This document shows positions 13,091 through 19,725 of a stretch of 64,000 nt of DNA, piece by piece (position 1 is the stretch's first letter; every line of letters starts with the position of its first letter). This stretch comes from Cavia porcellus (taxonomy: Eukaryota > Chordata > Mammalia > Rodentia > Caviidae). The translations under genes and the position numbers were made by a program. The notes under the pieces were generated by a model. It saw only the letters and a program-made list of their open reading frames with translations. It had not been told where the DNA came from and searched no databases. Where the stretch lies: NCBI RefSeq assembly GCF_034190915.1, contig NW_026947486.1, positions 20,796,001-20,860,000 on the forward strand, given 5' to 3'.

Positions 13091-13188
13091 TGTAGGGAGC
13101 CGAGTGACAGGCATTGCTGCCTAGATGTCTCTCTCTCTCTCTCCTATGGGCACTGCGTCTGCCTACATTAACCATAATCCTCTTCTGC

Positions 13189-13196
13189 TTACGTCA
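13189..13196 (+). promoter_or_regulatory. CRE/ATF-like site in the LTR
   Basis: TTACGTCA matches the CREB/ATF core with one base off the palindrome. It lies about 76 bp upstream of the TATA box, a normal enhancer position. It is conserved in the 3' LTR (19491-19498). Function is inferred only. Confidence 0.5.
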
Positions 13197-13271
13197 CTTA
13201 TCCGGATGTGATGGTAACCCTGTTGTATTCATCTGTTTAACCTCTTCCTGTCCCAGCTCCCGCCCTTAGCC

Positions 13272-13301
13272 TATAAAAGGTGTGATTATTTTCTCAATAA
13301 A
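13272..13301 (+). promoter_or_regulatory. LTR core promoter: TATA box with adjacent AATAAA
   Basis: TATAAA at 13272-13277 is followed by AATAAA at 13296-13301. The transcription start should fall around 13300-13310, implying a short R. Confidence 0.8.
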
Positions 13302-13425
13302 CCGGAGGCTTGATTGGGTTAACATCAACTTGCCTTCGTCTCTTTTTGTCTCCCCCATGTCTTTTGTTTAATCCCCGTTTCTCCTCCAGGAGTTCCGAAC
13401 TTGTTGATCTGCAGGCCGGATCAAG

Positions 13426-13443
13426 TGGCGCTCAGCGTGGGAG
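13426..13443 (+). promoter_or_regulatory. Primer-binding site, tRNA-Lys(1,2)-like
   Basis: tggcgctcagcgtgggag lies two bases after the LTR end. It matches the Lys-1,2 primer-binding consensus at about 14 of 18 positions, fitting a class II (ERV-K-like) element. Confidence 0.8.
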
Positions 13444-13640
13444 CTCCTGGCACGGAGAAGTTAAAGAGGGAGCCGTTCGAGAGACAGCCGGCTTAAACCG
13501 AAAGTGAAAGCAAATTGAACCAGAGACCTCGGCCGAGGAATGAGTAAACTGAATCAAGGATTAAAGTTTAAAGCAACAGGACATTAAATCAAGTGCCGAG
13601 ACCTGCGCAGGCGACTACCCGACGTCCTGCCCGAGTCACG

Positions 13641-15635: not shown

Positions 15636-16429
15636 ACCTCTGTTCCGCCTCCAGCACAGTTTTAACCGCTGACATGGGTGTTCAGATCATACCCTCAGGA
15701 ATCTATGGGCCCCCTCCCCCCGGAAGTTTTGGACTTATCATTGGACGTAGTAGCACTACGCTTAAAAGATTACAAGTTCTGCCCGGGATAGTAGATAGTG
15801 ATTACACAGGAGAAATAAAGGTCATGGTTTCTCCCCTTGTCGGTGTCATACCAGTTAGGACAGGGCAACGCCTTGCTCAATTGCTGCTATTGCCATTGGC
15901 TCAAACATCTAACAAATGCATAACTCCCTATAGGAGGAACTCCTTTCCTGGAGCTTCAGATGTATATTGGGCACAACGTATCTCCAAACAAAAGCCCCTC
16001 ATGACTCTGTCTTTAGATGGAAAAAGTTTCTCAGGCCTCATTGATACAGGCGCAGATGTTTCCATTATCAGAAAGGAGGAATGGCCTACTGCCTGGCCTT
16101 TAGAAACAACCTTAACACACCTCCAAGGGATTGGACACTCAAAAAATCCACAACGCAGTTCCAAACAACTGGTTTGGAGAGACCAAGAAGGTAATCAAGG
16201 ACACTTACAACCTTATGTCATAGAGAGTCTGCCTCTTAATTTATGGGGTAGGGACTTACTCTCTCAAATGGGATTAATTATGGGAAGCCCTAATAATGTT
16301 GTCACAATGCAAATGCTTAGTAAGGGCTACCTGCCAAAACAGGGCTTAGGAAAAAATAACATGGGCATTACTGATCCCATCATTCCCATCCCTAACAATG
16401 GTAAAGTTGGGTTAGGCCATTTTTCTTAG
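15588..16429 (+). CDS. pro: Retroviral Pro: dUTPase, aspartic protease, G-patch
   Basis: Entry is by -1 frameshift at 15581-15587, so there is no ATG at the true start. The dUTPase-like domain (about 15620-15930) shows motif 1 with an unusual Asn for the usual Asp (SAGLNLCSA), an RSS motif and PGIVDSDYTGEIKV. The protease has its DTGADVS active site at 16043 and the C-terminal GRDLL. A short G-patch (GLGKNNMG) precedes the TAG at 16427-16429. The frame is uninterrupted. The dUTPase lowers dUTP, and the protease dimer cleaves Gag and Gag-Pro-Pol. The Asn in motif 1 suggests reduced dUTPase activity. Confidence 0.9.
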
Positions 16430-18620
16430 GGGCCATTGACGCTCCTGCGATCCATGCTACACGAATTACATGGCTATCAGATGAGCCGGTATGGGTCGAT
16501 CAGTGGCCCCTTAACTCTGAAAAGCTTGCAGCCGCAAGGCAGCTGGTGCAGGACCAGTTAGATGCAGGCCACATTGTTCCTAGTAATTCCCCTTGGAACA
16601 CACCTATCTTTGTTATCCGGAAAAGGTCAGGAAAGTGGAGGCTGCTACAAGACCTTAGGGCGATAAATAAGACAATGGTCTTAATGGGGCCCCTACAACC
16701 AGGCCTCTCCTCACTCAGTGCCATTCCTTTAGGATTTTTTAAAATTGTCATAGATCTTAAAGATTGCTTTTTCTCTATTCCTTTACACTTCATGACTTCC
16801 AAAAACTATTGGGAGATATTAATTGGCTCATACCATTTTTAAAACTAACTAAACATGATTTACAGCCCCTTTATGCACTGCTTCGGGGAGACATAGATCC
16901 AACTTCCCCCCGAGAGCTTACACCTGATGCCAGGAGAGCGCTCAGTAAAGTAGAAGAGGCTATTGCTCAACAAACTGTTTCCTTTATGGACTACAATGAG
17001 CCTTTACAGTTTCTCATTTTTAATACAAAGCTTTGCCCTACAGCAGTGTTCTGGCAACAAGCTCCCCTCATGTGGGTCCATTTACCAGTCTCTCCAAAAA
17101 GAACACTTTTGCCTTATTTCCAAGCTGTCTCAGACCTAATAATCCAGGGTAGAAAGCAGGGAAAATGTTACTTTGGCAAAGAACCAGACGTTATCATTCA
17201 ACCTTTTACAAAAGACCAAATAGATTGGCTACTTCAGAGTACTGAAGTGTGGCCTATTGCCTTAGCTTCCTATTCAGGGACTATTGACAATCATTACCCT
17301 CCAAATAAGCTAGTTGACTTTGCTAATCGTCACTCATTTATATTCCCTAAAGTCACAGCTTCGCAACCCCTTCCAGGTGCCCTGGTTTTATTCACTGATG
17401 GCTCATCCTCTGGAAGAGCTGCTTATGTATCTCAAGACAATGTTTCTACCCTCCAGGCAGATACTTCCTCTGCACAATTAACAGAGTTAGAAGCTATTCT
17501 TGCAGCTTTTGCTGCTTACTCTGACCAACCATTTAATTTGTATACTGACAGTGCTTATCTTGCCCAGTCTGTTCCATTATTAGAGACTGTTGCTATTATA
17601 TGTCATGCTTCCCCAGCTGCAAATCTGTTCAAACAATTACAATGCTTCATACGGCTTCGCCGTCATAAGTTCTTTATCGGTCATCTGCGAGCTCATTCCA
17701 ACCTCCCAGGGCCTCTTGCCCAAGGAAATCATTTGGCTGATGTTGCTGTACGAACACAGGTTTTTATGGCTCAGGACTCCAAGGTGTCTGAGGCCCAACA
17801 AGCCCACCAGTTACATCACCTCAATGCTCACACCCTCCGCCTTCTCTACAAAATTACCTGTGAGCAAGCCAGACAAATTGTAAAAAATTGCCCATCTTGT
17901 GCTATCCACTCACCTGTTCAACACCTAGGAGTCAACCCTAGAGGTTTAATTCCTAATGCCTTATGGCAAATGGATGTTACCCATTTCAATGAGTTTGGCA
18001 ATCTAAAATATGTACATGTCATTATTGACACTTATAGTGGCTTCATTTTTGCCACTCTCCAGACTGGAGAAGCTGCTAAACACATTATAGCCCATATGCT
18101 GTCAGCCTTCTCAGTTCTGGGATGTCCTCAACAGCTTAAGACCGATAATGGCCCTGGCTATACCAGCACCTCCTTTGCTCAATTTTGTAAAAGCCTTAAT
18201 ATCCTCCACACTACAGGTATACCTTATAATCCTCAGGGACAAGGCATTGTTGAACGTGCGCATCGTTCTCTTAAATTCACCATAGATAAAATAAAAAGGG
18301 AGACATGGTACCCCACCTAGGGGTCCCCTAGAAATGTCCTTTCACATGCTCTTTTTATTTTAAATTTTCTGACCCTGGATGCTTCAGGCTGCTCCGCAGC
18401 ATCTCGGTTTTGGCATACTCAGACTCAAACACGGTTTGCATCTGTTTTATGGAGAGACCCACTAACCAATGTGTGGAATGGCCCTGATCCAGTCCTTATC
18501 TGGGGACGAGGTTCAGTGTGTGTTTACTCTCAACAAGATAGAGGAGCTAGATGGCTACCTGAACGCCTCGTAAAGCAAGTAGACAATTCTTCAAAGACCC
18601 CATGTAACGCCCAGGAATAA
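16405..18620 (+). pseudogene. pol: Retroviral Pol with RT palm deletion and IN stop
   Basis: The first part is in the -1 frame relative to pro and contains the RT fingers and motif A ('IVIDLKDCFFSIPLH', near 16745-16790). At about 16790-16805 it jumps to the RT connection ('FQKLLGDINWLIPFL') in another frame. The rest of the palm, including the YxDD catalytic motif, is missing. RNase H (about 17390-17760: FTDGSS, ELEA, YTDSA, GNHLADVA), the integrase zinc domain (about 17805-17905) and the D,D-35-E core (near 17970, 18140 and 18245) follow. A TAG at 18318-18320 stops integrase. Its C-terminal domain continues in the same frame to TAA 18618-18620. No textbook pro-pol slippery heptamer is apparent at 16405-16429. 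Confidence 0.92.
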
Positions 18621-19171
18621 TGTTATTTCCTGAGGCACAATCCCCTGTGTTCTCTTACAGGTGACACATCTCCCTGGAGCCTTATGCTGCTTAACCAGCC
18701 TTCTTGAGCCACACCACACCCATGGTGGATTTTGACCCCTGCCAAACAGACTGCAACTGCTGACAGCCATGCACAGAACCCCATGACTGTGGAAGAGGCT
18801 CTTCTCGGTCTGGAGGAACATACGCCAGCCAAATAGACTGCATCCAGTATTATTCAAGGCATGCTCCAAGACACAGGAGAATGACTTCATACAGAGACAC
18901 CAACAAATGACTGTCAACCCCTTCTCCTTGATTTTGGGGGGGGGGAGTTTTTCCCTTACCTAGTCCCACTTTTGGGTCCCCTAGCTGACCTATTGTTTCT
19001 CATTTCTGTGAGTCTTGTATTTTTCAGAGGATTATGATGTTCATTAATAACCGGATAGACGCATTTATGGCAAAGCCCATTCAGGTACACTACCATCAGC
19101 TGGAGATGACAGATCAACAAACCTACAGGGAAGGAATTCCCACGAGTGGCCCATATGATGATGCGGCCTGA
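18621..19171 (+). pseudogene. env: Env remnant with a type-D-like transmembrane tail
   Basis: Most of env is gone: only about 550 bp separate integrase from the env end, against about 1.7 kb normally. Near 18970-19033 a hydrophobic anchor is readable in one frame. The cytoplasmic tail (19034-19171) is in another and contains AKPIQVHYHQLE, resembling the tails of type D / gamma-like retroviral envelopes. Surface-unit fragments in 18621-18940 are too short to place. A run of ten G (near 18938) adds to the disruption. The remnant encodes no usable glycoprotein. Confidence 0.7.
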
Positions 19172-19378
19172 CTGCCCTGGGGCAATGGACAGGCAGTCAG
19201 AGACGGGCAACTAGGACATGCATGTTAATTCCAACGGCCACCTAAGACAGGCACAGGACCAACTGCTGTTCTGCAAGCCCATGACGGGTAAGGCCTGGTT
19301 GGGTTCATGCAATGAGGTCCTTGACCTAAGACAGACGCTGTCCTCACAGGGCCTGCCATACTCTTAATTAAATAATAT

Positions 19379-19392
19379 AAAAAGGGAGGAGA
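19379..19392 (+). promoter_or_regulatory. Polypurine tract
   Basis: aaaaagggaggaga ends exactly at the 3' LTR. It is the standard plus-strand primer position. Confidence 0.9.
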
Positions 19393-19725
19393 TGTAGGGA
19401 GCCGAGTGACAGGCATTGCTGCCTAGATGTCTCTCTCTCTCTCTCCTATGGGCACTGCGTCTGCCTACATTAACCATAATCCTCTTCTGCTTACGTCACT
19501 TATCCGGATGTGATGGTAACCCTGTTGTATTCATCTGTTTAACCTCTTCCTGTCCCAGCTCCCACCCTTAGCCTATAAAAGGTGTGATTATTTTCTCAAT
19601 AAACCGGAGGCTTGATTGGGTTAACATCAACTTGCCTTCGTCTCTTTTTGTCTCCCCCATGTCTTTTGTTTAATCCCCGTTTCTCCTCCAGGAGTTCCGA
19701 ACTTGTTGATCTGCAGGCCGGATCA
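19393..19725 (+). repeat. Provirus 3' LTR
   Basis: 333 bp, identical to the 5' LTR except A instead of G at 19564 (offset 171). It keeps TATAAA (19574-19579) and AATAAA (19598-19603). Confidence 0.95.
19598..19603 (+). terminator. Proviral polyadenylation signal
   Basis: AATAAA in the 3' LTR, about 24 bp after the TATA box. It is the likely 3'-end signal of the genomic RNA. Confidence 0.75.

What the first reader, a model, noticed from the sequence alone, without database searches (positions are those of the whole stretch)
13091..19725. Very young but defective provirus: a likely trans-mobilised copy
Seen: 333-bp LTRs with one mismatch and an exact 6-bp TSD, yet the RT palm and almost all env are missing. 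Known: the two LTRs are identical at integration, so one mismatch points to a recent event. Inference: the deletions were already in the source copy, and an intact relative supplied RT and integrase.
Basis: partly seen in the sequence, partly recalled or inferred. Interest (0 to 1): 0.75.

Follow-up and report, generated by a model that had tools for sequence, protein, structure and literature searches.

The report
Helper-mobilised hybrid endogenous retrovirus copy
A rodent genome, probably guinea pig, carries a recently inserted retrovirus copy that cannot make its own copying enzyme; many separately inserted relatives share the same broken spot, so such copies are moved by intact relatives, and this one looks like a natural hybrid of a long and a short form.

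Summary
In detail: 333-bp LTRs with one mismatch, exact 6-bp duplication, RT palm missing, no recognisable env. The RT junction is matched end to end by 40 of 40 scored places, self included (638 candidates). Nineteen RT-deleted copies have exact 6-bp duplications, 18 distinct: separate insertions carrying one inherited deletion (394 bp, 3-nt overlap). The env-poor 3' end is matched by 40 of 40. Trans-mobilisation is well supported.

All 24 other RT-deleted loci fetched also lack gag-pro. The five gag-bearing relatives tested keep the palm; two ~4.4-kb copies lack gag-pro but keep it. Only the window provirus has gag-pro without palm: 1 of 40 scored (1386 candidates). All four combinations of two apparently single-origin deletions exist, so recombination occurred; two variants beside the RT junction suggest a short-form 3' donor, though trees are unresolved. 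The 3' end holds a candidate constitutive transport element. A new member of a known kind, with a neat natural recombinant.

The parts
13085..13090 (.). left target-site duplication GTCTAG
13091..13423 (+). 5' LTR, 333 bp; TATAAAA at 13272, AATAAA at 13296
   Evidence: 40 of 40 scored genomic copies of 1711 candidates are 99-100% identical
13426..13443 (+). primer-binding site, tRNA-Lys1,2-like (assignment from recall)
   Evidence: read directly 2 nt after the LTR
13676..15430 (+). gag: MA p10, CA p24 (both domains), first zinc knuckle; frame change in NC at an A12 run (15377-15388)
   Evidence: Pfam, tblastn frames
14216..16508 (+). gag-pro stretch missing from the ~4.0- and 4.4-kb relatives
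15491..16429 (+). pro frame: dUTPase, aspartic protease, G-patch
   Evidence: Pfam
16405..16787 (+). RT amino-terminal part (fingers, start of palm)
16785..16787 (+). RT deletion junction: 394 bp lost, 3-nt overlap, frame changed
16785..18320 (+). RT thumb, RNase H, integrase zinc finger and core; private in-frame TAG at 18318-18320
18321..18620 (+). integrase C-terminal DNA-binding domain
   Evidence: Pfam IN_DBD_C
18621..19187 (+). stretch in the place of env; no env domain found; shared by the family
19188..19360 (+). candidate constitutive transport element: GACGGGYAA (19202, 19283) alternating with CCTAAGACAG (19241, 19325)
   Evidence: motif per PMC4330393 passages
19379..19392 (+). polypurine tract
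   Evidence: read directly
19393..19725 (+). 3' LTR, one mismatch to the 5' LTR
19726..19731 (.). right target-site duplication GTCTAG

Best explanation
The provirus is a recent insertion of an env-less, betaretrovirus-like (simian type D-related) endogenous retrovirus family. The RT palm deletion is an old, single-origin lesion carried by a non-autonomous subfamily whose usual form is ~4.0 kb and also lacks gag-pro; that subfamily multiplies on proteins supplied by longer relatives (shown: shared junctions, different insertion sites, young LTR pairs; inferred: the protein supply). The window copy is most likely a chimera made in one particle: reverse transcription took the 5' part from a long gag-pro RNA and switched, between about 16509 and 16698, to a short palm-less RNA (shown: unique combination, four-class pattern; inferred: template switch, breakpoint). 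It kept what a passenger needs in cis: LTRs, primer site, polypurine tract and a probable RNA-export element.
For: RT junction matched end to end by 40 of 40 scored places, self included, of 638 candidates; 24 of 24 other RT-deleted loci fetched lack gag-pro, 23 of them with the same 14214-14217/16509 junction; 19 RT-deleted copies with exact 6-bp duplications, 18 distinct; LTR mismatches 0 in 4, at most 1 in 10, of 24 pairs. A query spanning the 16509 edge and the RT junction is matched end to end only by the window copy; the other 39 of 40 scored (1386 candidates) start at exactly 16509. Five of five gag-bearing relatives tested keep the palm, 4 of 5 with an open 233-codon RT stretch; two 4.4-kb copies have palm without gag-pro. 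Variants 16698 A plus 16715 T of the window copy occur together in 4 of 23 4.0-kb and 1 of 2 4.4-kb copies and in 0 of 5 gag-bearing copies. Published parallel: bovine ERVK[2-1-LTR] defective elements (PMC10924933, passages).
Against: Donors are not resolved: over the whole 16512-16784 stretch C9 differs from the window copy at 3 sites, as do L040 and L015, while L014 (a palm-bearing short copy) differs at 1; in 18224-19392 C9 (0.68%) and L046 (0.60%) are equally near; at 16790-16906 C9 differs at 0 of 117. Trees of two segments have 2 of 22 and 1 of 23 inner branches well supported and none places the window copy. Only the best 40 candidates are scored, so a diverged copy of the same structure could be unseen. 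Helper activity was not shown.
Confidence: 0.8

Rival explanations
1. The window copy is a late member of a gag-pro-bearing, palm-less lineage that was the ancestor of the 4.0-kb forms; the hybrid class is then the 4.4-kb one.
For: Recombination is needed for one of the classes, not necessarily for this one. Its 5' stretch 13424-14214 lies about as far (2.15% at least) from the short copies as they lie from each other (nearest-neighbour mean 2.0%).
Against: No second copy of this structure among 40 scored of 1386 candidates or 40 of 638 (of which the self and 24 loci were classified); the copy itself is young, while 4.0-kb copies with up to 7 LTR mismatches exist.
Confidence: 0.13
2. An existing provirus at this site was altered by gene conversion from another copy, rather than by template switching before insertion.
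For: Mosaic relationships among copies are widespread, and conversion would also make a one-off structure.
Against: Needs loss or gain of 394 bp or 2.3 kb by conversion in the short time since insertion suggested by the LTRs.
Confidence: 0.05
3. The deletions arose after this insertion, or in the very cycle that made it, with no defective relatives involved.
For: Proviruses defective at birth are common in general (recalled); the TAG at 18318 is private to this copy.
Against: The same RT junction stands at 39 other scored places and the env-poor 3' end at 39 others.
Confidence: 0.01
4. The youth is false (LTR gene conversion) or the structure is an assembly mis-join of a short and a long copy.
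For: Near-identical copies abound, which is where assemblies and conversion go wrong; no reads were available.
Against: No N in the window, exact duplication on both sides; CpG observed/expected 0.55 in the LTR against 0.14 in the flanks fits a young insert. The empty-site alignment was uninformative.
Confidence: 0.06

Closest known systems
Bovine ERVK[2-1-LTR] competent/defective pair (PMC10924933, passages read)
   Same: Young LTR pairs, defective copies ~6.8 kb (here 6.6 and 4.0-4.4 kb) that share LTRs with competent ones and are held to move by trans-complementation; recombination between the two types reported there.
   Different: There the defective form carries a swapped central segment; here it has simple deletions (gag-pro 14216-16508, RT palm 394 bp). 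Mobilisation was measured there, not here.
Mouse IAP I-delta-1, ETn/MusD, koala recKoRV (named in PMC10924933 passages; details recalled)
   Same: Non-autonomous copies moved by relatives; IAP and MusD, like this family, are env-less (recalled).
   Different: Other retroviral lineages and hosts; this one is nearest to simian type D retroviruses by Pol.
Simian type D retroviruses (SRV-1, -4, -5)
   Same: Pol piece 61-63% identical; CA and MA best match M-PMV-type structures; dUTPase-protease frame, tRNA-Lys1,2-like primer site, CTE-like 3' end.
   Different: No env domain; endogenous, many copies; not in primates.

Membership tests
Betaretrovirus-like ERV | Gag p10/p24, dUTPase plus protease in their own frame, Pol nearest to betaretroviruses | tested here: met
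Betaretrovirus-like ERV | Lysine tRNA primer site | tested here: inconclusive
   site read at 13426; assignment to tRNA-Lys1,2 from recall, no host tRNA compared
Betaretrovirus-like ERV | env gene | tested here: not met
   six pieces, no env domain; the genome search for Pfam PF00429 did not complete
Non-autonomous, trans-mobilised ERV | Defect shared by copies with different insertion sites | tested here: met
Non-autonomous, trans-mobilised ERV | Related copies able to supply the missing part | tested here: inconclusive
   five gag-bearing relatives keep the palm, 4 of 5 open over 233 codons; other genes of those copies not examined in full, activity unknown
Non-autonomous, trans-mobilised ERV | Mobilisation by helper proteins demonstrated | not testable with these tools
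   needs experiments or pedigrees
Type D constitutive transport element | Two internal loops with AAGACA in two-fold symmetry (PMC4330393, passages) | tested here: met
   sequence and order met; AAGACA-containing 10-mers twice in 27 of 27 copies, GACGGGYAA twice in 25 of 27
Type D constitutive transport element | Long hairpin as preferred fold | tested here: inconclusive
   single-hairpin fold -54.2 kcal/mol, 5 of 300 shuffles as low, but a different fold is lower (-59.3; z -1.18); no covariation seen; no Rfam match
Type D constitutive transport element | NXF1-dependent RNA export | not testable with these tools
   needs a reporter experiment

The most novel reading that the evidence does not exclude
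The genome hosts a layered, recently active parasite system: env-less long elements with gag-pro-RT, a 4.4-kb passenger lacking gag-pro, and a 4.0-kb passenger lacking gag-pro and the RT palm, all sharing LTRs and a type D-like export element; the window provirus is a direct fossil of long and short RNAs having been packaged together and joined by template switching.
Probability: 0.6. Interest if true: 0.6.

Novelty: new member of a known kind. Interest (0 to 1): 0.5.

Why it matters
Trans-mobilised ERVs are known from mouse, koala and cattle, but cases in which every deletion class survives with young LTRs are useful. Here four combinations of two deletions can be counted in one assembly, so co-packaging and recombination between helper and passenger can be inferred from DNA alone. 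The retained type D-like export element in env-less passengers would show that RNA export, not coding capacity, is what the family keeps.

Tried and rejected
Deletion after insertion, or in this cycle only: rejected by shared junctions. Lesion clock from one LTR mismatch: 0.2-50 interior substitutions (95% range), too wide to decide alone. Protein database for the out-of-frame junction tail: 0 of 167 and 0 of 287 proteins held have it; not evidence either way. Viral contigs: a gag piece found no relative (8 pattern stretches, none confirmed); two contigs with the CTE-like pattern were not followed up. Rfam on the 3' end: two chance-level matches. Empty-site alignment to the 99-bp repeat unit: score 28, the same as the left flank plus 5' LTR, uninformative. 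Trees: unresolved. Literature: no description of this family in the listings; passages read in PMC3621094, PMC10924933, PMC4330390, PMC4330393, PMC4174252, PMC7551171 and PMC4333357; PMC114269 is not held. Marsupial host, my first guess, was dropped.
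Full report
What is there. Two 333-bp LTRs differ at one site and are bounded by GTCTAG on both sides. Between them lie a tRNA-Lys1,2-like primer site (assignment recalled), a gag frame with MA, CA and a zinc knuckle, a dUTPase-protease frame, an RT amino-terminal part, an RT thumb-RNase H-integrase frame, the integrase C-terminal domain, about 570 bp without any recognisable domain, a CTE-like stretch, a polypurine tract and the 3' LTR. Against an RT structure the protein jumps from residue 154 to 285, and three relatives' Pol proteins skip 130 residues at the same point. The gag frame changes at an A12 run and the integrase region has a TAG at 18318.

What family. Gag CA and MA best match M-PMV-type structures; the Pol piece is 69% identical to an unnamed ENA protein and 61-63% to simian retroviruses 1, 4 and 5. 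The nearest named Gag is a Cavia porcellus protein, 89% identical over 53% of the query. Contig C1 of the window's assembly (242,967,356 bases) is nearly as long as the contig of that Cavia protein (242,971,967), so the host is probably guinea pig or a very near relative; this is inference.

Are the deletions shared? The window is C3:20796001-20860000 of a 3.15-Gb assembly. The first 330 bp of the LTR have at least 40 copies at 99-100% (40 scored of 1711 candidates, self included). A 301-bp query across the RT junction is matched over at least 299 of 301 bases by 40 of 40 scored places (638 candidates). An 80-nt stretch across it aligns end to end in 23 of 23 RT-deleted copies, 21 without a gap, while the two palm-bearing short copies align only from 16785 on. 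Of 24 LTR pairs measured, 21 have an exact 6-bp duplication, 20 of them distinct; for RT-deleted copies 19, of which 18 distinct. L046 and L056 share one duplication and are probably the same insertion twice in the assembly; L043 and L044 are two units of a tandem array whose outer flanks match. LTR mismatches range from 0 to 7, median 2. These are independent insertions that inherited one deletion.

What the relatives look like. The short copies join 14214-14217 to 16509, so they lack gag-pro: 25 of 26 loci mapped have this junction, and the other (L039) has a larger deletion. Of these, L012 and L014 (LTR start to LTR start 4.4 kb) keep the RT palm; the other 24, most at 4.0 kb, lack it; L016 has a 482-bp insert. 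A CA query finds gag-bearing copies, the nearest at 97-99% (40 scored of 182 candidates). The five nearest were tested: all keep the palm, and the 701-bp RT piece is open throughout in 4 of 5. A palm query gives 40 scored of 242 candidates. The 18400-19190 stretch is matched end to end by 40 of 40 scored (1080 candidates), and three of four gag-bearing copies examined have the same 3' end (the fourth, L077, has a further deletion), so the env loss is older than the split into long and short forms.

Why a hybrid. The query 16350-17000 spans the 16509 edge and the RT junction. Only the window copy matches it whole; the other 39 of 40 scored (1386 candidates) start at exactly 16509. With gag-pro/palm written +/-, all classes exist: ++ (five tested), -+ (two), -- (24 loci), +- (the window copy only). 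If each deletion arose once, as identical junctions suggest, recombination must have produced one class, and the singleton is the likeliest. Variants 16698 A and 16715 T just left of the RT junction occur together in 4 of 23 4.0-kb and 1 of 2 4.4-kb copies but in 0 of 5 gag-bearing ones. Against this: over the whole 16512-16784 stretch C9 is as near as two of those four short copies (3 differences each), the 3' end does not separate long from short donors, and trees of two segments are unresolved. Mosaic distances are general in the family: L014 is 0.37% from the window copy in one segment and 1.8-2.4% in the others.

RNA export. GACGGGYAA occurs exactly twice and CCTAAGACAG exactly twice in 64 kb, alternating within 133 bp. 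AAGACA in two symmetric loops is the published hallmark (PMC4330393, passages), and that paper's SRV-1 half-element primers contain both motifs. A single hairpin puts the AAGACA motifs in internal loops, at -54.2 kcal/mol, as low in 5 of 300 shuffles; but the unconstrained optimum is another fold at -59.3, not unusual against shuffles. In 27 copies 19 of 173 positions vary; both CCTAAGACAG motifs are intact in 27 of 27, both GACGGGYAA in 25 of 27. No compensating changes were seen. Candidate, not proven.

Age. One mismatch in 333 bp gives about 0.4-0.75 million years with assumed rates of 4e-9 and 2e-9 per site and year (rates recalled), 0.01-4.2 over the Poisson range. CpG content agrees with youth.

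Noticed in passing
L058, L059, L060, L063, L065, L067, L068: Of 13 unpaired LTR hits looked at, 7 are solo LTRs with exact 6-bp duplications, 4 are 3' LTRs and 2 are 5' LTRs; the young family is already being lost by LTR-LTR recombination.
   Followed up: partly
L043, L044 (C5:108728736-108740654): Tandem array of two 4.0-kb units sharing a middle LTR, with matching outer flank TATATT.
   Followed up: no
L046 (C32) and L056 (C46): Same duplication CCATAC and very similar sequence: probably one insertion present twice in the assembly.
   Followed up: no
L016 at window-equivalent 18217-18222: An RT-deleted copy with a 482-bp insert in the integrase region.
   Followed up: no
L046, L056, and other short copies: RNase H-integrase frame still open over at least 600 codons in 2 of 25 copies, odd for passengers; could be youth or selection.
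   Followed up: no
window 11000-13090 and 19726-22304: L1-like sequence in opposite orientations on the two sides, with a 99-bp tandem array at 19859-20209 and a related unit at 12942-13049.
   Followed up: partly
window 45587-45650 (-): tRNA-like match just above Rfam's cut-off, resembling a rodent ID-type SINE (resemblance recalled).
   Followed up: no
L001, L002: Two IMG/VR contigs with the CTE-like motif pair; not examined.
   Followed up: no
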